This document shows, in pieces, positions 32,205 to 42,774 of a DNA stretch of 64,000 nucleotides (position 1 is its first letter; every line of letters starts with the position of its first letter). The translations under genes were made by a program, and so were the position numbers. This stretch comes from Pelomonas aquatica (GTDB lineage Bacteria; Pseudomonadota; Gammaproteobacteria; Burkholderiales; Burkholderiaceae_C). Location of the stretch: assembly GCF_026712205.1 (NCBI RefSeq), contig NZ_JAPPUW010000016.1, positions 1 to 64,000 on the forward strand, read 5' to 3'. A model generated the notes under the pieces. That model was not told the DNA's origin. It did not search any database and was given only the letters and a program-made list of their open reading frames with translations.

Positions 32205-33773
32205 CTACCGTTTCATGAAGTCGGGGCTGGCCAGAAGCAGGGCCACCTGCTGGCCGACGGGCTCGGTGGCCAGCGTGCGGCGCGTGGGTTCGCTCAGCGA
32301 GGCACCCAGCGTCGTGCCGAGCTGGCCAGCGCTGACGCCGCTGCGCCGGCCCAGCGTCGTCGCGAGCTGCACGCGCTGCGTCAGCGCCTCGGGGTTGCGC
32401 CAGGCGGCGGCGGTGTTCTTGTAGCCGTCGGGCGTCTGCGCGCCGTACAGCGGCTGGCCGGCCTGGGCCAGCGCGGCCAGCAGCGGCTGCGGTTGATCCA
32501 GCGGCAGGTCGAGCGCCCGCAGGCTGGACACGAGGTATTGGTAGGGCGTCTTGAACTTGGCCTGGTAGGCCTCGCGGCTCCAGAACTCGTCGGACTGGAG
32601 CAGCGTGCGCGTCAGCTCGCGCAGGTCGCCGCCGCTGGCCTTGAAGTTGCCGGCCAGACGCGCCACCAGGGCCTGCGGCGGCTCGTCCGCGACGAAGGCC
32701 TGGGCGAACTGCCAGGCCAGGTGGCGGGCCGTGGCCGGATGGGCGGCCAGCACGTCCAGCGCATGCTCGCCCTCGGCCTGGCCGGCACCGCGGACGGTCT
32801 CGCCGAGCCAGGTCTTGTCGCCGGCGTCGTGCTTGTGCGGGTCGAAGGCGAACAGGTCGCCCTGAGCCCCATTCGCATCGACCAGGGCCTTGCGCGAGTC
32901 CAGGCCCCAGCCGGTCAGCATGCGCGCGAGCTCGGTCACGTCGCGCTGCGTGTAGCCGCCGTCCACGCCCAGCGTGTGCAGCTCCATCAGCTCGCGGGCG
33001 TAGTTCTCGTTCAGACCGGTGGGCACGCGGGCCTTGAGCTCGGGCCGCCCGGCCAGGAGGTGGCGCGCGCGCTGCGGCGGCCGGTAGCCGGCGACGACGC
33101 TCTGCGCGTTGTCGAGGTAGGTCAGCATCGCCGGGTGGCGGGCCGTGGCGCCCAGCATGTCGCGGAAGCGCCCCAGCACGAAGGGGCGGATGGCGCGCTG
33201 CTCGTAGTCGGCCACGAGCACGCTGACGGAGCCCTTGCCGGCGAACACATTGAAGTGGTTGAACCAGAACTCGACCAGCGCCTCTTCGAGCTGGGCCGGG
33301 CTCTGCAGCGCGCGCGCCAGCCGCGCGGTGGCGGCCTCGGCAACGAGGGGGCGCACCTGTTCGCGCACCGCGTTCAGCGCATCGGCGTCGGGCTTCATGC
33401 CCCGGGCCTGCTCGCGCCTGGCCTCGCGGGCGGACTTGAGCGCGTCGCGGTAGCGGCCGAGGAGTTCGGCCTGGCCGAGCCCGAGCAGCTGCATGCCGCC
33501 CAGTCGTTGCGTCAGCGCCTCGGGCTGCGGCAGGCGGCGCGGCTCCAGCTGCTCGGCCAGGAAGCGCTCCAGCCAGGGGCCGGCGCCCTGCGCGGCGATG
33601 GCGGCGGCATCCTGCGGGCGCGGGCCGTAGCCCAGGCGGTTCAGCGCATGCAGCGCGCGCTCGTCGGCGCTCAGCGGCGCGCCCGCCGGCGCGGCGGCGT
33701 GGGCACGCCGGGCCAGCATCATGGCCCCGGCGAGCGCGGCGCCCGTGCCGAGCACGAAGCGGCGGTTCATCAT
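32205..33773 (-). CDS. DUF1800 family protein (exported)
   Basis: 522 aa with a probable Tat signal (MMNRRFVLGTGAALAGAMML). DUF1800 features include LHALNRLGYGPRPQD, ALVEFWFNHFNVFAGKG, NENYARELMELHTLGVDGGY and TGWGLDSRK. Pairs with the downstream DUF1501 protein; such pairs are widespread but uncharacterised. Confidence 0.88.
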   Translation of the reverse strand: MMNRRFVLGTGAALAGAMMLARRAHAAAPAGAPLSADERALHALNRLGYGPRPQDAAAIAAQGAGPWLERFLAEQLEPRRLPQPEALTQRLGGMQLLGLGQAELLGRYRDALKSAREARREQARGMKPDADALNAVREQVRPLVAEAATARLARALQSPAQLEEALVEFWFNHFNVFAGKGSVSVLVADYEQRAIRPFVLGRFRDMLGATARHPAMLTYLDNAQSVVAGYRPPQRARHLLAGRPELKARVPTGLNENYARELMELHTLGVDGGYTQRDVTELARMLTGWGLDSRKALVDANGAQGDLFAFDPHKHDAGDKTWLGETVRGAGQAEGEHALDVLAAHPATARHLAWQFAQAFVADEPPQALVARLAGNFKASGGDLRELTRTLLQSDEFWSREAYQAKFKTPYQYLVSSLRALDLPLDQPQPLLAALAQAGQPLYGAQTPDGYKNTAAAWRNPEALTQRVQLATTLGRRSGVSAGQLGTTLGASLSEPTRRTLATEPVGQQVALLLASPDFMKR

Positions 33774-34070: not shown

Positions 34071-34463
34071 TCAACTGCCGGGTCTGGGGTCATGGCCGAG
34101 CCAGTGCGCCAGGCTGCGCAGCGTCGCGGCGACGTCCAGCGGCTTGGTCCAGCAGCCGTCGAAGCCGCCCGCGCGGGCGAGCCGGGTCGCCACGTCCTCG
34201 GACTCGGCCGTCACGAGCAGGGCCGGCACGCCGCTGGCCAGGCCGGCGACACGCAGCTCGGCCAGCAGCGCGTCGCCGGCAACGTCGGGCAGGCGCAGGT
34301 CGCACAGCAGCAGGTCCACATCGGCCGCGGCGACGGCGCTGCGCGCCTCGGCACCGTTGCGCGCGACGCGCAGCCGGCAGCCCGCGCCCAGGTCGAGGAT
34401 GCCCTGCATCAGCATCACGTTGAGCGGGTCGTCCTCGACGTAGAGCACGGTCTTCGGGCTCAT
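34071..34463 (-). CDS. Single-domain response regulator
   Basis: 130-aa receiver with no output domain: acidic pair in VLYVEDDPLNVML, phospho-acceptor Asp in LLLCDLRLPDV, Thr in LLVTAESED and Lys in CWTKPLD. The ATG at 34463 starts the receiver domain. Probably a shuttle in a phosphorelay or a CheY-like effector. An AT-rich TTATCAAAT motif lies about 82 bp upstream. Confidence 0.88.
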   Translation of the reverse strand: MSPKTVLYVEDDPLNVMLMQGILDLGAGCRLRVARNGAEARSAVAAADVDLLLCDLRLPDVAGDALLAELRVAGLASGVPALLVTAESEDVATRLARAGGFDGCWTKPLDVAATLRSLAHWLGHDPRPGS

Positions 34464-34544: not shown

Positions 34545-34563
34545 ATTATCAAATTTATTGATA
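34545..34563. promoter_or_regulatory. AT-rich regulatory motif, site 1 (upstream of receiver gene)
   Basis: TTATCAAATTTATTGATAA: perfect 7-bp arms TTATCAA and TTGATAA separated by ATTTA. The left half contains TTATCAAAT, which recurs at 36009-36040 and 40240-40254 in the same signalling cluster. Confidence 0.6.
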
Positions 34564-34634
34564 AACACGCCTATCCGATCCGGCCCCGGAATGGGTGGAT
34601 GCCGGACCGGAACTGCCAAATATTGCAGACCGCT

Positions 34635-35348
34635 TCAACTTCGAAGCGCCGCCAGCCCCTCGGCCAGGGCCGGCCAGCCGGCCGGCGGCGGCGCGCCCGG
34701 CACCCAGGCCGCGGCGGCGTCCTCCAGCGCGCGGGCCTGGGCCGACAGCGCCGGCTGGCCGATCAGCTCCAGCACGGCCTTCAGGCCGTGGGCCAGGCGG
34801 CGCAGGGCGGCCACGTCGGCGCCCGCCAGCGCAGCGTCGCCCTGGGCGATATCGTCGGCAAAGCGCTCGATGCAGCCGGCGCGGAAGCTGTCGAAGAGTG
34901 CCCTGTCGCCGCCGAAATGCTGCTGCACCGCGTCGACGGCCGGCACCGGTTGCCAGGCGGCGGGCCGCAGCAGGCCGGCCACGACGTCGAGCAGCTCCAG
35001 CAGCGGCACGGGCTTGCGCAGCGTGCGCGCGACGCCGCCCGCGAGCAGCGCCCGCCGCCGTTCCTCGTGCAGGCCGGCGCTGAAGATGAGCCAGGGCGGC
35101 GCGGCAGGGGCCAGCGCATGGCCCTCGGCCAGCAGCTCCTCGGCCGAGCCGTCGGGCAGCATCAGGTCGCTGACGACGAGCTGCCAGCCGCCGCCGGCCA
35201 GCGCGGCGCGGGCGCCGGCCAGGTCGGGCACGAGGTGCAGCTCGACGGCCGGCGCGGCCGGGTCGTGACGGGGCAGCTCCTCCAGCGCGAGCTCGACGAA
35301 GCGGGCGATCGAGGGGTTGTCCTCGATCAGCAGCAGCCGCGCGGCCAT
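34635..35348 (-). CDS. Response regulator with C-terminal Hpt domain
   Basis: 237 aa. N-terminal receiver (LLLIEDNPSIARFVELAL, Asp in LVVSDLMLPDG, Lys in TLRKPVPL) joined to a C-terminal histidine phosphotransfer domain (LRRLAHGLKAVLELIGQ) whose His in RRLAHGLKA is the likely phospho-acceptor. It follows the HTH-receiver gene by 8 bp on the same strand, so both belong to one unit. This provides the His-phosphotransfer step of a relay. Confidence 0.85.
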   Translation of the reverse strand: MAARLLLIEDNPSIARFVELALEELPRHDPAAPAVELHLVPDLAGARAALAGGGWQLVVSDLMLPDGSAEELLAEGHALAPAAPPWLIFSAGLHEERRRALLAGGVARTLRKPVPLLELLDVVAGLLRPAAWQPVPAVDAVQQHFGGDRALFDSFRAGCIERFADDIAQGDAALAGADVAALRRLAHGLKAVLELIGQPALSAQARALEDAAAAWVPGAPPPAGWPALAEGLAALRS

Positions 35349-35356
35349 CGCGGTGC

Positions 35357-35974
35357 TCAGGCGGGGCTGGCGGCGCCGGCCGCCGCCCGCGCCAGCAGGG
35401 CCGGCAGCTCGGCCACCAGGGCCGTCTTGTGCACGACGGGCACGCCCTCCAGTGCGAAGGCATAGGGCGCGCGCTGCGCCGCGTCGAGGGCCGTGACGAC
35501 GATGAGCCGGCTGCGCGCGAACTGCGGGTGCGAGCGCAGGCTGGTGATCAGCGCGGCGCCGTCGATGCCGGGCAGCAGGATGTCGATGAGCAGCACGTCG
35601 GGTTCGAGCCGGCCGGCCATCGCGAGGCCGGCGATGCCGTCGGCGGCGACGTGCAGCTCGGCCCCCGGCAGCTCGCGCCTGACGACGAGGCTGATGAGGT
35701 TCTGGAAATGCACCGAGTCCTCGATCAGCAGCAGCGTCAGCGGGCGGCTCGCGGCGACCGCGGCGGGCGGCGCGGCGCCGCCGGCGTTCGCGGCCAGCCA
35801 GGCGTCGAGGGAGCTGAGCAGGATGCGGCGGTGGCCGCCGGGCGTCTTCCAGGCCTGCAGCTCGCCGCGGTCGACCATCAGCTGGACCGAGCGGACGGCC
35901 ATGCCCAGGCGCCCCGCCGCCTCGGTCGTCGAGCAGGTTTCCGGCATTGATGCAGTGCGATTCACGCGCGACAT
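35357..35974 (-). CDS. Excisionase/MerR-type HTH DNA-binding protein fused to a receiver domain
   Basis: 205 aa. Residues about 13-60 (CSTTEAAGRLGMAVRSVQLM and VDRGELQAWKTPGGHRRI) form an excisionase-like winged helix; about 80-195 is a receiver (LLLIEDSVHFQNLI, Asp in VLLIDILLPGIDG, Lys in VVHKTALV). DNA-binding domain first, receiver second is the reverse of most response regulators. Start uncertain: ATG at 35974 chosen, ATG at 35947 possible. Divergent from the HD-GYP gene across tandem AT-rich motifs, so autoregulation is plausible. Confidence 0.82.
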   Translation of the reverse strand: MSRVNRTASMPETCSTTEAAGRLGMAVRSVQLMVDRGELQAWKTPGGHRRILLSSLDAWLAANAGGAAPPAAVAASRPLTLLLIEDSVHFQNLISLVVRRELPGAELHVAADGIAGLAMAGRLEPDVLLIDILLPGIDGAALITSLRSHPQFARSRLIVVTALDAAQRAPYAFALEGVPVVHKTALVAELPALLARAAAGAASPA

Positions 35975-36008
35975 TTTGCCGAATTCATCAGCCCTTACCG
36001 GAGAGACC

Positions 36009-36040
36009 TTTATTTGATAAAAATGATTTTTATTTGATAA
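36009..36040. promoter_or_regulatory. AT-rich regulatory motif, site 2 (tandem copies in a divergent promoter)
   Basis: Two direct copies of TTTATTTGATAA start at 36009 and 36029, spaced exactly 20 bp (two helical turns), between the HTH-receiver gene and the HD-GYP gene. ATTTGATAA is the reverse complement of TTATCAAAT seen at sites 1 and 3. The 15 bases 36012-36026 recur exactly, inverted, at 40240-40254. Confidence 0.65.
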
Positions 36041-36066
36041 TCCATCCACCACGCAGGAGAGCCGCC

Positions 36067-36893
<827 letters not shown>

Positions 36894-36897
<4 letters not shown>

Positions 36898-37682
36898 AGC
36901 GCCTGGCGCTGGGCGCCTGCGCGGCGCTGCTGCTGGCCGGGCCGGCCGCGGCCGCGCCCCCGGTCGCGCAGCGCGTGCGCGACAGCGGCGAGCTGCGCGT
37001 GTGCATCTGGCCCGACTACTACGGCATCTCGCTGCGCGACCCGCGCACCGGCCAGCTCGCCGGCATCGACATCGACCTGTCCGCCGCGTTCGCGGCCGAC
37101 CTGAAGGCCAGGCCGCGCTACGTCGACTCGTCGTTCGCGACGCTGGTCGACGACCTGCTGCAGGAGCGCTGCGACGTCGCGATGTTCGCCGTCGGCATGA
37201 CGGCGCAGCGCCAGCAGGCGCTGCGCTTCAGCCGCCCCTATCTGCAGAGCGACATCTATGCGGTGACGACGCGCAGCAGCCGCGTCGTGCAGCGCTGGGA
37301 AGACCTCGACAAGCCCGGCGTGCGCGTCGCCGTGCAGGCCGGCACCTTCATGGAGCCGGTCATGGCCGCCGCGCTGAAGCAGGCGACGATGGTCGTCGTG
37401 CGCCCGCCCGACACGCGGGAGCGCGAGCTGGAGGCCGGCCGCGTCGACGCCTTCATGACCGACTACCCCTACAGCCGCCGCCTGCTCGACAACGCCGACT
37501 GGGCCCGCCTCGTCGCGCCGCCCCGGCCCTTCTCGGTGCTGCCCTATGCCTATGCCGTCAAGCCCGGCGACGCGGCCTGGCTGGCCACCGTCGACGACTT
37601 CGTCGTGCGCATCCAGCGCGACGGCCGGCTGCTGGACGCGGCCAGGCGGCACGGCCTGACCGCCATCGTGCGGACCCACTGA
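36894..37682 (+). CDS. Periplasmic amino-acid-type substrate-binding protein
   Basis: 262 aa. Signal peptide (MKRLALGACAALLLAGPAAA) followed by a type II SBP_bac_3 fold (GELRVCIWPDYYGISLRDP, LAGIDIDLSAAFAADL, VGMTAQRQQALRFSRPYL). No ABC permease or ATPase accompanies it; instead it overlaps the HD-GYP gene (ATGA) and the histidine kinase gene (TGATG). It is therefore probably a ligand receptor for the kinase rather than a transport component. Confidence 0.9.
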
Positions 37683-40183
37683 TGCCGCACCGCAGCCGCT
37701 GGCGCCCGAGCAACATCACGGCCGGTGCCGGGGTGCTGCTCGCCGCGCTGCTGCTGGCCGGCACCGGCTACGGCCTGTGGCGCGACCGCCGCGACCTGCA
37801 TGCCGAGGCCGCCGACCGCCAGGCCCTGCTCGCCCGCGTGCTCGAGGACCACGCCAGCCGCAGCCTCGACGCGGCGCAGATCGCCCTCGCCGGCCTGGCC
37901 GACGTGGCCGCGCGCGGCGGCCCGCCCGAGGTGCTGCAGGCCCTGCTCGGCCAGACCCAGGCCAGCCTGGGCTTCCTGCGCGGCGTCGCGCTGCTGGACG
38001 GCGGCGGCCATGTGCTCGCCGCGGCGGACCCGGCCGACCGCGGCGTGCAGATCCCGCCGGCGGCGCTGGGGCCCTGGCCGGCGCCGGGGCGCGACGCGGT
38101 CGGCGGCTTCGTCGCCGGGCGCAGCCTCGCGACGCTCAGCCGCCGCGCGGCCCCCGCGGCCGTGCCGCCCGGCATCGGCTTCATCCCGGTGACGCGGGCG
38201 CTGCAGCTGCCCGACGGCCGCACGCTGCTGCTCGCGGCCCTGCTCAACCCCGATGCGCTGGCCAACTTCCAGCAGCTGACGCTCAACGACGAGCACAGCG
38301 CCGCCGGCCTGGTGGCGCTGGACGGCCAGCTGCTCGCGGCGACGGACCGCGCCGGCCACCTCGCCGGCGCGCGCCTGCCGGCGCTGCTCGGCGCCGGCGC
38401 GCCGCTGGCGCGGCTGCAGCGCGGCGACGAGCACGGCCGCTGGGACGGCCCGGGCCTGCGGCCGGCGCCCCAGCTGGGCACGTTCCGCGCGCTGCGCGCC
38501 CGGCCGCTCGTCGTGCTCGTGGAGCTGCCGCTGGCCGAGCTGCAGCGCCAGTGGCTGGCCGACATGCGCGACACCGGCCTGCCGGCCCTGGCCCTGGCGG
38601 CCGCCCTGCTCGTGCTGTCCAACGTCGGCGCGGCGGCGCTGCGCGGGCGCGAGCGCTCGATGCTGGAACTGGACCGCGCGCAGCGCCAGGCCGCCGACCG
38701 CGAACGCGAGCTCAGCGCCATCTTCGGCAGCGTGCAGGACCTGCTCTTCCGCACCGACGCCGCCGGCCGCGTCACCTTCATCAACGAGCGCTACACCCAG
38801 CTCAGCGGGCTGGCCGTCTCGCACGCCCTCGGCCGGCCGCTGCAGGGCTTCTTCGGCGGCGCCCGGGCCGTGGCCGCGCTGTTCGAGCAGGCGCCCGGCC
38901 CCGGCGACCAGCTGCCGCGCCATGCGCGCGCGGACTGGATCACGCCCGGCGGCGAGGCGCGCAGCTTCGAGATCACGCTGGTGCCGCTGCCGCGCCGGGG
39001 TGCGCTCGAATGGGTGGGCAGCGCCACCGACGTGAGCGGCCTGATGCGCGCCCAGTCGGAGCTGCGCGCCCAGCTCGGCCTCGCGCGCTCGCTGCTGGCC
39101 AGCAGCCCGCTGCCGATGTCGGTGCTGGACCGCCACGGCCGCTACCTCGACGTCAACCGCGCCTGGGAGCAGTTCACCGGCCGCCGCCGCGCCGACGTGC
39201 TGGGGCGCCCCGCCGCCGGCTATCTGCGCTCCGAGGAGGCCCGCGTGCACGACGCGCACGACGCCGAGCTGCTGGAACGCGGCGGCGAGATGAACTACGA
39301 GACCGTCTGGACCAGCGACGAGGGCCGGCGCCGCGACATCTACATCAGCAAGTCCACCTTCCCCGGCACCGACGGCCGGCCGATGGGCATCGTCGTGTGC
39401 TTCATGGACATCAGCGAGTTCCGCGAGGCCGAGCGGGCGACCCGCGCCGCCCGCGACGCGGCGCTCGAGACCTCGCAGGCCAAGTCCGAATTCATCGCCA
39501 ACGTCAGCCACGAGCTGCGCACGCCGCTGCAGTCCATCCTCGGCTTCTCCGAGCTCGGCGAGCTGCGCGCCCGCCAGGAGCCGCGCCTGGCCGGCATGTT
39601 CGCCGACGTGCACCGCGCCGGCCAGCGCATGCTGGCGCTGGTGAACGACCTGCTCGACCTGAGCAAGATCGAGCAGACCCGCGAGCCGCTGAATCTGCAG
39701 CGCCACGACCTGCGCCCCCTCGTGAACGAGGTCGCCGCCGAGCTGCAGCCGCTGCTGCAGGGCCGCCGCATCGAGCTGGCCTGCGCGCTGTGCCGCGAGC
39801 CGCTGGTGGCCATGGTCGACGCGCCGCGCTTCCAGCAGGTGGTGCGCAATGGGCTGGCCAACGCGATCAAGTTCTCGCCCGAGGGCGCTCGCATCGAGGT
39901 CGAGGGCCGCCACGCGCCGGACGGCCAGGTGCTGATCGACATCGCCGACCGCGGCCCCGGCATCCCGGCGGCCGAGCTGGAGAGCGTGTTCGAGGCCTTC
40001 GTGCAGTCCAGCGCCACCAAGGACGGCTCGGGCGGCACGGGCCTGGGCCTGGCCATCTGCCGCCGCATCATGCAGGCCCACGACGGCCGCATCCGGGCCG
40101 CCAACCGCGACGGCGGCGGCACCCTGCTGCACCTGAGCCTGCCCGGCGCCCGCTTCGGCGACACCTCGCCGGCCACGCTGTGA
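37682..40183 (+). CDS. Membrane PAS-domain sensor histidine kinase
   Basis: 833 aa. N-terminal helix (ITAGAGVLLAALLLAGTGYG), a periplasmic sensor region of about 260 residues, a second helix near 300, two PAS domains (FGSVQDLLFRTDAAGRVTFI and ASSPLPMSVLDRHGRYLDV), then HisKA with H-box FIANVSHELRTPLQSIL and HATPase with NAIKFSPEG, DRGPGIP and GGTGLGLAICRR. No receiver of its own, so it must signal through the separate receivers nearby. Start ATG at 37682 overlaps the upstream stop (TGATG). Confidence 0.92.
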   Translation: MPHRSRWRPSNITAGAGVLLAALLLAGTGYGLWRDRRDLHAEAADRQALLARVLEDHASRSLDAAQIALAGLADVAARGGPPEVLQALLGQTQASLGFLRGVALLDGGGHVLAAADPADRGVQIPPAALGPWPAPGRDAVGGFVAGRSLATLSRRAAPAAVPPGIGFIPVTRALQLPDGRTLLLAALLNPDALANFQQLTLNDEHSAAGLVALDGQLLAATDRAGHLAGARLPALLGAGAPLARLQRGDEHGRWDGPGLRPAPQLGTFRALRARPLVVLVELPLAELQRQWLADMRDTGLPALALAAALLVLSNVGAAALRGRERSMLELDRAQRQAADRERELSAIFGSVQDLLFRTDAAGRVTFINERYTQLSGLAVSHALGRPLQGFFGGARAVAALFEQAPGPGDQLPRHARADWITPGGEARSFEITLVPLPRRGALEWVGSATDVSGLMRAQSELRAQLGLARSLLASSPLPMSVLDRHGRYLDVNRAWEQFTGRRRADVLGRPAAGYLRSEEARVHDAHDAELLERGGEMNYETVWTSDEGRRRDIYISKSTFPGTDGRPMGIVVCFMDISEFREAERATRAARDAALETSQAKSEFIANVSHELRTPLQSILGFSELGELRARQEPRLAGMFADVHRAGQRMLALVNDLLDLSKIEQTREPLNLQRHDLRPLVNEVAAELQPLLQGRRIELACALCREPLVAMVDAPRFQQVVRNGLANAIKFSPEGARIEVEGRHAPDGQVLIDIADRGPGIPAAELESVFEAFVQSSATKDGSGGTGLGLAICRRIMQAHDGRIRAANRDGGGTLLHLSLPGARFGDTSPATL

Positions 40184-40239
40184 CGCCCGCCCGGCGTCGC
40201 CGTGACGCATCTCACGGGCGATAAATTCGATTGTTGCTA

Positions 40240-40254
40240 TCATTTTTATCAAAT
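40240..40254. promoter_or_regulatory. AT-rich regulatory motif, site 3 (upstream of the last receiver gene)
   Basis: TCATTTTTATCAAAT, an exact inverted copy of 36012-36026, about 90 bp before the next receiver gene. It contains the shared TTATCAAAT core. Confidence 0.6.
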
Positions 40255-40341: not shown

Positions 40342-40713
40342 ATGAAGCGCGTTCTCATCGTCGAAGACCAGGCCGACATCCGCAAGCTCATCCGCATGAC
40401 GCTGGAGTTCGAGGCCTATGAAATCCACGAGGCCACGGACGGCACAGCCGGGCTGACGCTGGCGCAGGCGCTGCGGCCCGACCTGATGCTGCTGGACGTG
40501 ATGATGCCCGGCGCGCTCGATGGCCTGCAGGTCTGCCAGCGCATCAAGTCCGACCCCGGGCTGGCCCGCATCAGGATCGTGCTGCTGACCGCCCGCGGCC
40601 AGGCGCGCGACCGCCAGGCTGGAGCCCAGGCCGGCGCCGACGACTACCTCGTCAAGCCCTTCAGCCCGCTGCAGCTCATCGACACGATCGAGCGCCTGAC
40701 CGAGACGGCCTGA
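40342..40713 (+). CDS. Single-domain response regulator
   Basis: 123-aa CheY-like receiver: VLIVEDQADIRKLI, phospho-acceptor Asp in LMLLDVMMPGALDG, Thr in VLLTARGQ, Lys in DYLVKPFSP. A GAGGAG ribosome binding site precedes the ATG at 40342. It lies 158 bp downstream of the kinase gene with its own AT-rich motif, so it may have a separate promoter. Confidence 0.9.
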   Translation: MKRVLIVEDQADIRKLIRMTLEFEAYEIHEATDGTAGLTLAQALRPDLMLLDVMMPGALDGLQVCQRIKSDPGLARIRIVLLTARGQARDRQAGAQAGADDYLVKPFSPLQLIDTIERLTETA

Positions 40714-40735: not shown

Positions 40736-42277
40736 CTAACGCAGCGGCGCGCCGGTGAGCTGCTGGATCAAGGCCCGGTGGCTGGGCAGGTCGACGACGG
40801 CGCGGTCGGCGAAGCGCTGGATCTTGGCGAACAGCCGGTCCGCGGCCTCCACCTGCGTGAAGTCGTCGCGGCCCGCGCCCAGGTCCGTGCGGAAGCCCAT
40901 GCCGTAGAGGATGTACTGGTAGTTGAAGAAGGCGAAGGTCTCGGTGTCGAGCGCGAAGTCGAAGCGGCCCGGCGGGCGCAGCCGCCACTGCGCCAGCAGC
41001 TCGGCCAGGCGCCCGGGGATGGTGGCCGGGTCGGCGTTGTCGCGCCAGAACGGCTCCTGCCGGCCGCTCAAGGCGTAGTGCAGCTTCAGGAAGCCGATGA
41101 TGTTCTCGAAGCGCGCCGCCATCAGCTCGTTGAAGCGCCGGGCCGGCGCCTCCATCGGGCCGCTGTGCGGCAGCATCTCGGCGATCATGCCGACGGCGGC
41201 CTCGATGAGGACGAGGCCGGTCGACTCCAGCGGTTCCAGGAAGCCGGCCGACAGCCCGACCGCGACGCAGTTCTTCACCCATTGGTGCTCGCGGTAGCCG
41301 GGCGCGAAGGGGATGCTGCGCATCGCGATCTCGCCCGCCGCCGCGCCGGCATGGCGGCGCAGGATCGCGGCCGCGGCGTCTTCGCCAAGGTGGTCGCTCG
41401 AATAGACGCAGCCCAGGCCGCGCGAGCCGTTCAGGCCGATGTCCCAGGTCCAGCCCGCCTCGTGGGCGGTGGCGATGGTGCAGCTCTCGAACGCCGCGTC
41501 GTCGGGTTCGCCGGGCAGCTTGCAGGCCAGCGCACGGTCGGCGAACAGGATGCCGCGCGCCGACCTGAACCGGGCGCCCAGCGCACCGCCGATGAGCTCG
41601 GCGCGGAAACCGGTGCAGTCGATGTAGAGGTCGGCCTGCAGCCGCCCCAGCTCGGGCGTGTCGACATGGGCGATGGCGCCCGCATCGTCCAGGCCCGCCT
41701 GGGTGACGGTGCCCTGCAGATGGCGCACGCCGAGCTGGCGGGCGTGCGCGGCCAGCAGCCGCGCGAGCTTCAGCGCGTCGAAGTGGTAGGCGTAGTTCAG
41801 CGGCGCCGTGTAGGGCGCCTCGTGGGCGCGCTTGGGCGCCCTTCGCGCGTCGGCCACGCGCTGCTGGATGGTCAGCGCCTGCGCGAAGGGCAGGCGCGCG
41901 GCCTCGTCCTGCAGCAGCCAGTAGGGCACGAGGTTGAGCCCTTCGGCATAGAACGGCGCCTCGAAGGGATGGAAGAAGTGCCGGGACTCGCCCGCCGCCG
42001 GCGTGCGCGCCCAGTCGACGAAGCGGATGCCCTGCTTCAGCGTCGCCGAGGTCTCGCGGATGAAGCGCGCCTCGTCGATGCCGAGGAACTGCAGCGTCGT
42101 GCGTATCGTCGGGAAGGTGCCCTCGCCGACGCCGATGACGCCGATGTCGGGCGACTCCAGCACCGTCACCTCGAGATGGCTGCGCTCGGCCAGGCGCAGG
42201 GCCTTGGCCAGATAGGCGGCCGTCAGCCAGCCGGCCGTGCCGCCGCCGACGATGAGGATGCGACGCTTGGGGGTCAT
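40736..42277 (-). CDS. Flavin-dependent tryptophan halogenase-family protein
   Basis: 513 aa. FAD-binding GxGxxG (ILIVGGGTAGWLTAAYLA), a Lys in TLKQGIRFVDW at the position expected for the catalytic lysine, and EPLESTGLVLI containing the glutamate region of Trp halogenases. The diagnostic WxWxIP motif is changed to WTWDIG (GWTWDIGLNGSRG). A halogenase or related flavin monooxygenase; substrate unknown. The ATG at 42277 overlaps the upstream toxin stop (ATGA). No TonB receptor or biosynthetic genes sit beside it. Confidence 0.85.
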   Translation of the reverse strand: MTPKRRILIVGGGTAGWLTAAYLAKALRLAERSHLEVTVLESPDIGVIGVGEGTFPTIRTTLQFLGIDEARFIRETSATLKQGIRFVDWARTPAAGESRHFFHPFEAPFYAEGLNLVPYWLLQDEAARLPFAQALTIQQRVADARRAPKRAHEAPYTAPLNYAYHFDALKLARLLAAHARQLGVRHLQGTVTQAGLDDAGAIAHVDTPELGRLQADLYIDCTGFRAELIGGALGARFRSARGILFADRALACKLPGEPDDAAFESCTIATAHEAGWTWDIGLNGSRGLGCVYSSDHLGEDAAAAILRRHAGAAAGEIAMRSIPFAPGYREHQWVKNCVAVGLSAGFLEPLESTGLVLIEAAVGMIAEMLPHSGPMEAPARRFNELMAARFENIIGFLKLHYALSGRQEPFWRDNADPATIPGRLAELLAQWRLRPPGRFDFALDTETFAFFNYQYILYGMGFRTDLGAGRDDFTQVEAADRLFAKIQRFADRAVVDLPSHRALIQQLTGAPLR

Positions 42278-42774
42278 GCTCTGGTGTACAGATTCTTCAG
42301 CCACTGGTGGCCGGTCTGGGTGCCATGGCTCCAGTCCTCGTCCTCGTCGGCGGCTTGCTGGGCGATGCTGCCCGAGGGGTTGAGCAGCTTCACGCGCCCG
42401 GCCCGGAAGGCCGAGACCCGGTGCGTGACGAAGGTGAGGCCGTGCTCCAGCGCCGTGGCGGCCAGCAGGCCGTCGCGCGTGTTGGCATAGGGCAGCTGGG
42501 CGCGGCGGCGCACGATGGCGGCGTCCACCGGCAGCACGCGGCCCTCGAAGGCCGGCAGCAGGCGGTTGTCGATCCAGTCGCGCACGGCCAGGCCGGCGGC
42601 GCGGTCCTTGCGGCCCAGGCGCGCCGCGGCGTTCTCGATCTCCAGCAGGTTGAGCGCCGAGATGAAGAGCTTCTGGCGCGCGATGCCGGCCGCCCAGGCC
42701 GCCAGGCCGGGGTCGGCGCCGCCGGCCTTGGCCCGGCGCAGTTCAAGCACGATGCCGGTGTCCAGCAGGAACAT
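42274..42774 (-). CDS. PIN-domain toxin, VapC type
   Basis: 166 aa. PIN fold with the first acidic site in MFLLDTGIVLELRR, a Glu in NLLEIENAA and further acids in NTRDGLLAATALEHGL: a ribonuclease toxin. About 35 C-terminal residues (SIAQQAADEDEDWSHGTQTG onward) exceed the usual VapC length and run into the halogenase start. Pairs with the upstream antitoxin gene, 8 bp away. Confidence 0.88.
   Translation of the reverse strand: MFLLDTGIVLELRRAKAGGADPGLAAWAAGIARQKLFISALNLLEIENAAARLGRKDRAAGLAVRDWIDNRLLPAFEGRVLPVDAAIVRRRAQLPYANTRDGLLAATALEHGLTFVTHRVSAFRAGRVKLLNPSGSIAQQAADEDEDWSHGTQTGHQWLKNLYTRA

What the first reader, a model, noticed from the sequence alone, without database searches (positions are those of the whole stretch)
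34545..40254. Shared AT-rich motif TTATCAAAT in all three promoter regions of the signalling cluster
TTATCAAAT or its complement occurs at 34545 (inside TTATCAA-N5-TTGATAA), as two 20-bp-phased copies of TTTATTTGATAA at 36009 and 36029, and at 40240 as an exact 15-base inverted copy of 36012-36026. In such GC-rich DNA this is striking, and every copy sits upstream of a cluster gene. The obvious candidate binder is the excisionase-type HTH-receiver protein encoded at 35357-35974, which would make it autoregulatory.
Basis: partly seen in the sequence, partly recalled or inferred. Interest (0 to 1): 0.75.

Follow-up and report, generated by a model that had tools for sequence, protein, structure and literature searches.

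The report
Nine-base-repeat operator of signalling cluster
A short AT-rich DNA word that is almost unique in this GC-rich genome marks the control regions of one bacterial signalling gene cluster; many relatives keep it, often as repeats nine bases apart, beside the gene for the same DNA-binding response regulator, which probably uses it to control itself and its partner genes.

Summary
Observation confirmed. TTATCAAAT occurs five times in the 5.12-Mb genome, four of them in this cluster. The 15-mer TTTGATAAAAATGAT occurs twice, both here, with nothing else at 1-2 mismatches. ATTTGAT is invariant between regulator and HD-GYP gene in 16 of 16 genus loci, and TTGATAAT stands upstream of the small receiver gene RR1 in 14 of 14. 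A matrix from 15 genus sites (window left out) scores p<=0.05 beside the regulator in 55 of 82 further loci, about 4 expected by chance. The commonest spacing of TGAT is 9 bp (26 of 82 regions, 0.6 expected); such repeats also occur by distant homologues in the order and class. The regulator's winged helix is structurally closest to BldC, which binds 9-bp direct repeats head to tail (PMC5859096, passages). Best reading: a BldC-like winged helix fused to a receiver binds this operator and controls its own cluster. Binding, sign of control and phosphorylation are inferred. Corrections: the copy at 36029 behaves like a -10 hexamer; the 40239 copy is absent before RR2 in four genus loci.

The parts
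34071..34463 (-). RR1: stand-alone receiver protein, 130 aa
   Evidence: Pfam Response_reg 4e-17
34545..34564 (.). RR1 promoter site TTATCAA-N5-TTGATAA; on the RR1 strand TATCAATAAATTTGATAAT, whose last six bases are a possible -10
   Evidence: only perfect match to TATCAANNNNTTTGATAAT in the genome; TTGATAAT in 14 of 14 genus loci with RR1, ATTTGATAAT in 13 of 14. The promoter scan found no promoter here
34635..35348 (-). receiver + Hpt protein, 237 aa
   Evidence: Pfam Hpt 1.4e-6; receiver below the Pfam cut-off
35357..35974 (-). proposed binder: N-terminal BldC/excisionase-type winged helix + C-terminal receiver, 205 aa
   Evidence: Pfam HTH_17 2.9e-10, Response_reg 1.6e-11; AlphaFold models; best PDB fold matches of the winged helix are BldC 6ama/6amk
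36009..36027 (+). conserved operator TTTATTTGATAAAAATGAT, two TGAT units 9 bp apart (GAT at 36016 and 36025)
36029..36041 (+). second copy TTTATTTGATAAT; contains the predicted -10 (GATAAT) of the HD-GYP operon
   Evidence: TTTGATAAT kept only in the window, L036 and L037; GACAAT in 7 of the other 13 genus loci
36014..36041 (+). predicted sigma-70 promoter TTGATA-16-GATAAT, overlapped by the operator
   Evidence: 10 of 12 consensus matches; 0.2 promoters expected in shuffles
36067..36897 (+). HD-GYP domain protein (probable c-di-GMP phosphodiesterase)
   Evidence: Pfam HD_5 1.1e-40; HDIGK and HHERWDGTGYP in the sequence
36894..37682 (+). family 3 solute-binding protein
   Evidence: Pfam SBP_bac_3 3.8e-21
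37682..40183 (+). PAS histidine kinase
   Evidence: Pfam HisKA, HATPase_c, PAS
40220..40254 (.). site upstream of RR2: GAT pair 9 bp apart on + (40220, 40229) followed by a 9-bp pair on - (ATC 40239, 40248) inside the 16-bp inverted copy 40239-40254
   Evidence: not found upstream of RR2 in L036, L037, L049, L055; promoter scan found no promoter here
40342..40713 (+). RR2: stand-alone receiver protein, 123 aa
   Evidence: Pfam Response_reg 2e-29

Best explanation
The motif is the operator of the HTH-receiver response regulator encoded in the cluster (35357-35974). Its winged helix is of the BldC/excisionase type and probably binds AT-rich units around TGATAA as head-to-tail units on 9-bp direct repeats; the C-terminal receiver, fed by the cluster's kinase and Hpt/receiver proteins, would set how well it multimerises. 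It controls its own gene and the divergent HD-GYP/solute-binding protein/kinase operon, and in this genus the RR1 gene. Shown: sequence, rarity, conservation, 9-bp periodicity, association with this regulator family, BldC-like predicted fold. Inferred: binding itself, autoregulation, control by phosphorylation. Sign of control: I lean slightly to repression, because the repeats often span predicted core promoters; activation is not excluded.
For: Near-unique in the genome. Conserved at two promoters in the genus. Matrix trained without the window: 22 of 82 held-out regulator loci at p<=0.005 (the lowest value possible) and 55 of 82 at p<=0.05. Among 65 of these loci the site scores p<=0.05 in 43 of 53 with cluster genes nearby, 1 of 4 with the Hpt gene only, 1 of 8 with the regulator alone. 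TGAT pairs at 9 bp in 26 of 82 de-duplicated regions against 0.6 expected and at 18 bp in 13 against 0.6, on the strand reading from the regulator to its neighbour; on the other strand 0 and 2. In other families of the order TTTGATAAAAATGAT lies next to a distant homologue (L197, L198) or a histidine kinase gene (L199, L200; for L199 a homologue lies 2.1 kb away); L197 has three TGAT and one TGAA in 9-bp step. In the class sample arrays lie directly upstream of distant homologues, e.g. four TGAT and one TGAA in L258; 6 of the 10 best-scoring loci reach p<=0.05. In G021 two regulator paralogues and a third promoter 6 kb away carry triple units. The winged helix matches BldC best by fold (TM 0.78-0.82), and BldC binds 9-bp repeats (PMC5859096, passages).
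Against: No binding data. 27 of 82 held-out loci miss p<=0.05, about 4 of the 55 hits are expected by chance, and some of the 55 (e.g. L056, L062, L063) do not look like the operator. Other TGAT spacings are enriched too: 5 bp in 9 regions, 4 bp in 6, 13 bp in 6. Regulators with an almost identical winged helix but no cluster neighbours mostly lack the site. The RR1 site is an inverted, not direct, repeat. Outside the genus the exact 13-mer and 15-mer also occur away from the regulator: 7 of 30 loci read were cluster-linked, 6 of 18 for the 15-mer, two of these being the window's own. BldC's base-reading Arg30 is Leu32 here; by sequence profile BldC itself is only E 0.14-0.15 and no fold match is below E 0.001. 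Of 18 weaker class-level loci 3 reach p<=0.05. Held-out loci are partly redundant or closely related.
Confidence: 0.8

Rival explanations
1. The repeated words are only core promoter elements (-35 TTGATA, -10 GATAAT); their resemblance reflects sigma-70 hexamers, with no dedicated binder.
For: In the window the two phased copies coincide with a predicted promoter, TTGATA-16-GATAAT. In 15 of 26 loci with a 9-bp TGAT pair the best-scoring promoter spans the pair, e.g. TTGACT-17-TATGAT in L059 (hexamer weights recalled, spacers of 15-19 only, no shuffle control). GATAAT also fits a -10 of RR1.
Against: Bases that would be spacer are conserved (TTTGATAAAAA), a 9-bp repeat is not a promoter feature, in the 7 genus loci with GACAAT the TTGATA lies only 14-15 bp from it (counted), the 15-mer has no near match elsewhere in the genome, and arrays of three to five units occur.
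Confidence: 0.12
2. A general AT-binding or bending protein (IHF, H-NS-like) is the binder.
For: AT-rich site in GC-rich DNA; TATCAA...TTG resembles the IHF consensus (recalled).
Against: The IHF consensus WATCAANNNNTTR (recalled) is absent from all three window sites and present in 1 of 16 genus regions between regulator and HD-GYP gene (the genus RR1 regions were not counted). Such proteins do not explain a near-unique 15-mer, the strand-specific 9-bp phasing or the link to one regulator family.
Confidence: 0.03
3. Another regulator, not the HTH-receiver protein, binds the site (for example an unlinked transcription factor that co-evolves with the cluster).
For: The site follows the cluster genes more than the regulator alone; no direct binding evidence.
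Against: Pfam shows no other DNA-binding domain among the seven cluster proteins. In distant genomes repeats lie beside the regulator gene although the neighbours change.
Confidence: 0.08

Closest known systems
BldC (Streptomyces), BldC family
   Same: Winged helix is the nearest fold in the PDB (6ama/6amk, TM about 0.8); GGHRR wing kept; no charged residue at the Leu43 position (Pro45, Ser in L058); Gly44 kept (Gly46); AT-rich 9-bp direct repeats of variable number.
   Different: BldC is a 68-residue wHTH without a receiver (PMC5859096, abstract and passages); its specificity residue Arg30 is Leu32 and Arg22 is Gly24 here; BldC's consensus is AATTXXXX(C).
8jbs, 'putative cobalamin binding protein' (MerR-like N-terminus)
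   Same: Nearest solved chain by sequence of the winged helix (E 1e-6 by profile; 8.7e-4 by single sequence), shares the PGGHRR wing.
   Different: Other C-terminal domain by its deposited name; no receiver; operator not looked up.
Phage/ICE excisionases (Pukovnik Xis 4j2n, RdfS 8dgl)
   Same: Similar winged helix; NCBIfam excise domain TIGR01764 above cut-off.
   Different: No recombination gene was seen in the cluster; the sites are upstream of signalling genes, and the protein carries a receiver.
OmpR/PhoB-type response regulators
   Same: Receiver plus DNA-binding domain; direct-repeat operators in some members (PMC5859096, passage).
   Different: Different DNA-binding fold, reversed domain order (DNA-binding domain N-terminal here), 9-bp spacing.
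Colwellia 'merR' DNA-binding response regulator, receiver structure 3cnb
   Same: Receiver similar and deposited as part of a merR-type response regulator.
   Different: Only the receiver is solved; no operator was seen.

Membership tests
BldC family of MerR-like regulators | BldC-type winged helix fold | tested here: met
   Foldseek top hits 6ama_B, 6ama_A, 6amk_B, E 1.6e-3 to 2.3e-3, TM about 0.8, 26-28% identity; profile search finds 6amk/6ama only at E 0.14-0.15
BldC family of MerR-like regulators | 9-bp direct-repeat operator of variable unit number | tested here: met
   TGAT spacing peaks at 9 and 18 bp; two to about five units. This is sequence, not binding, and the RR1 site is an inverted repeat
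BldC family of MerR-like regulators | Wing residues His46, Arg47, Arg48 and interface Gly44, with no charged residue at position 43 | tested here: met
   G46, H48, R49, R50 invariant in the 18 sequences; P45 (Ser in L058) at position 43; residue mapping from the alignment and numbering
BldC family of MerR-like regulators | Arg30 major-groove contact and Arg22-Glu16 bridge | tested here: not met
   Leu32 and Gly24 at these positions, E18 kept
BldC family of MerR-like regulators | stand-alone wHTH without effector domain | tested here: not met
   C-terminal receiver present; so it may work like BldC but is not filed as a BldC
BldC family of MerR-like regulators | cooperative head-to-tail binding | not testable with these tools
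   needs EMSA, footprint or structure
Two-component response regulator | receiver with acidic pair, phospho-Asp, Thr/Ser and Lys | tested here: met
   E85 D86, D131, T161, K183 invariant in 18 sequences
Two-component response regulator | phosphorylation changes output | not testable with these tools
   no biochemical data
Classical MerR regulator | C-terminal dimerisation/effector region of MerR type | tested here: not met
   the C-terminal part is a receiver
Classical MerR regulator | palindromic operator in a long (19-20 bp, recalled) promoter spacer | tested here: inconclusive
   direct repeats dominate but the RR1 site is an inverted repeat; the promoter script allowed spacers of 15-19 only

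The most novel reading that the evidence does not exclude
A family of response regulators, spread over several families of the class in which the window lies (Gammaproteobacteria in the GTDB sense, a name recalled, not from a call), uses a BldC-like winged helix to assemble phosphorylation-controlled head-to-tail multimers on arrays of 9-bp TGAT repeats; array length (two to about five units) would set the threshold of autoregulated signalling clusters and, in one lineage, of a repetitive lipoprotein-like gene.
Probability: 0.45. Interest if true: 0.75.

Novelty: new variant of a known kind. Interest (0 to 1): 0.6.

Why it matters
It gives a testable DNA code to a class of response regulators (excisionase-type HTH plus receiver) for which my literature searches found no operator, and would link the BldC direct-repeat mode of binding to phosphorylation. 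In this GC-rich genome the word is so rare that the regulon can be read from sequence.

Tried and rejected
IHF consensus test: rejected. Core promoter only: kept as a rival. Genome-wide regulon in the own genome: no further site at 1-2 mismatches and no second good inverted-repeat site (backward control 2 hits), so the regulon there seems restricted to this cluster at that stringency. G013 as a natural regulator-less control: uninformative, one kinase hit starts at a contig edge. Full-length Foldseek was dominated by the receiver, so the winged helix was modelled alone. Literature: ten searches. The one combining excisionase, response regulator, receiver domain and HD-GYP found nothing; the literal 13-mer gave three papers on other subjects by title; nothing in the listings described this operator. 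Only PMC5859096 was opened, as passages; all other papers were seen as search listings. The library leaves out most subscription papers.
Full report
OBSERVATION. Exact TTATCAAAT is at 34546(+), 36012(-), 36032(-) and 40246(+), none expected in 100 shuffles of the window. The own genome (5.12 Mb, 56 contigs) has five copies, four of them here; the fifth overlaps the start codon of an unrelated ORF. The 15-mer TTTGATAAAAATGAT is found exactly at 36013(+) and 40239(-), with no hit at one or two mismatches and ten at three (backward control, all mismatch levels: five). TATCAANNNNTTTGATAAT has one perfect hit, the RR1 site; the overlapping opposite-strand hit has two mismatches and four others have three (control 2).

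GENES. The cluster encodes RR1 (receiver), a receiver-Hpt protein, the HTH_17-receiver regulator, an HD-GYP protein, a solute-binding protein, a PAS histidine kinase and RR2 (receiver). Only the regulator has a DNA-binding domain that Pfam recognises. Its receiver keeps the acidic pair, phospho-Asp (D131), T161 and K183.

CONSERVATION IN THE GENUS. Of 19 same-genus genomes, 17 have a regulator hit at 1.7e-57 or better, G013 has none and G014 only a hit at 9.5e-11. I aligned the window and the 15 closest loci (L036-L050): ATTTGAT is invariant in 16 of 16 regions between regulator and HD-GYP gene (ATTTGATA in 15; L036 has ATTTGATC), and TTGATAAT is present upstream of RR1 in 14 of 14 loci with that gene. 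The two more divergent genus loci are L052 (TGACTGATAAAAATGAT, p=0.01) and L055 (weak, p=0.08). The genus is the Roseateles/Pelomonas group, judged from named contigs of the same length.

What is not conserved: the second 20-bp-phased copy is TTTGATAAT only in the window, L036 and L037; 7 of the other 13 loci have GACAAT there, as expected of a -10 hexamer. The scan predicts TTGATA-16-GATAAT at 36014-36041. The site upstream of RR2 was not seen upstream of RR2 in L036, L037, L049 or L055, where about 230 bp were read. In more distant loci in which an RR2 homologue is the regulator's divergent neighbour (for example L052, L059, L065, L099) the site does lie upstream of it, so control of an RR2-like gene recurs.

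OTHER GENERA. A 17-position matrix from the 15 genus sites (window excluded; sites picked as best match to the consensus) was tested on 82 further regulator loci (L051-L067, L083-L147): 22 reach p<=0.005, the lowest value possible, and 55 reach p<=0.05 against 200 dinucleotide shuffles each; 27 do not, and about 4 are expected by chance. Some loci are duplicates of each other, and a few of the 55 (L056, L062, L063) do not resemble the operator. For the 65 loci L083-L147, success goes with cluster genes: 43 of 53 with kinase, solute-binding, HD-GYP or RR2-like genes nearby, 1 of 4 with the Hpt gene only, 1 of 8 with the regulator alone.

THE COMMONEST UNIT IS A 9-BP DIRECT REPEAT. After removal of near duplicates (98 to 82 regions, genus and window included) TGAT pairs 9 bp apart occur in 26 regions (0.6 expected) and 18 bp apart in 13 (0.6 expected) on the strand that reads from the regulator gene towards its neighbour, against 0 and 2 on the other strand. 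Spacings of 5 bp (9 regions), 4 bp (6) and 13 bp (6) are also above expectation. Elsewhere in the order the exact 15-mer gave 18 hits in 13 of 399 genomes (control 3). Six of the 18 are the window's two sites, two beside a distant homologue (L197, L198) and two beside a histidine kinase gene (L199, L200; kinase genes are common, so this link is weaker, though a homologue lies 2.1 kb from the L199 site). Nine of the other twelve overlap a long mechanical ORF, as do some cluster-linked sites. L197 shows three TGAT and one TGAA in 9-bp step. In the family sample the 13-mer gave 34 hits in 24 of 299 genomes (control 9), 7 of the 30 loci read being cluster-linked. In 12 genomes chosen for having the regulator or motif, the triple unit TGATA-N4-TGATA-N4-TGA gave 56 hits at up to one mismatch (control 8), of which 8 are exact; 6 of those 8 lie at a regulator or kinase locus. 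G021 has exact triple units at two regulator paralogues, and one with a mismatch before a kinase-RR2 pair 6 kb away.

CLASS LEVEL. A profile search of 369 genomes of the class found homologues in 28, the own genome included, at E<=1e-30. Of 28 loci with a readable upstream region, TGAT pairs at 9 bp on the strand reading towards the regulator occur in 6 (0.4 expected). By a three-unit score, 6 of the 10 best-scoring loci and 3 of 18 weaker ones reach p<=0.05; the split was chosen, and three of the ten loci come from one genus. L258 has four TGAT and one TGAA in 9-bp step. There the array lies directly upstream of the regulator gene and reads towards it, which favours this protein as the binder.

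STRUCTURE. AlphaFold models: full length pLDDT 86.7, winged helix alone 92.5. The winged helix matches BldC-DNA structures first (E 1.6e-3 and up; none below 0.001), then Xis, RacA and NmlR. By sequence profile the nearest solved chain is 8jbs (1e-6), BldC coming at 0.14-0.15. In BldC each protomer covers a 9-bp direct repeat, head to tail, with the wing in an AT-rich minor groove (PMC5859096, passages). His46, Arg47, Arg48 and Gly44 are kept; Arg30 and Arg22 are not (alignments). Gln31 is invariant in the 12 diverse sequences and is a candidate for base reading (inference).

MECHANISM. Shown: rare, conserved units beside this regulator family; in 15 of 26 loci with a 9-bp pair the best-scoring promoter spans the pair (recalled weights, spacers 15-19 only, no shuffle control). 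Inferred: the regulator binds them as a multimer, autoregulates and controls the c-di-GMP-linked cluster, with phosphorylation by the kinase/Hpt proteins as the switch. I lean weakly to repression of the divergent promoter.

NOVELTY. No paper seen describes this operator (ten searches, listed under tried and rejected). It is best called a new variant: BldC-like recognition inside a response regulator.

Noticed in passing
window 35973-35985: ATTTTGCCGAATT at the regulator's start codon is strongly conserved in the genus and recognisable in many other regulator loci, including some that lack the operator; its role (leader, translation or promoter element) is unknown.
   Followed up: partly
window 34613-34627: A second conserved block upstream of RR1 in most genus loci (TATTTGGCA, followed by a CCACCCGTTCAGGGG-like stretch), possibly a site for another regulator or a terminator of the preceding gene.
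   Followed up: no
L199 and L200, about 1490: Three 9-bp units behind a TTGACA sit between a kinase gene and a repetitive lipoprotein-like gene in two genomes of another family of the order: possible regulon member.
   Followed up: partly
L225 centre (G084:C11:732149): A perfect triple repeat with no ORF of 110 aa or more close by, far from the regulator.
   Followed up: no
window 40736-42304: Tryptophan halogenase family gene next to the cluster (Pfam 3.6e-123).
   Followed up: no
window 32205-33773: DUF1800 protein gene beside RR1 (Pfam 1.6e-130).
   Followed up: no
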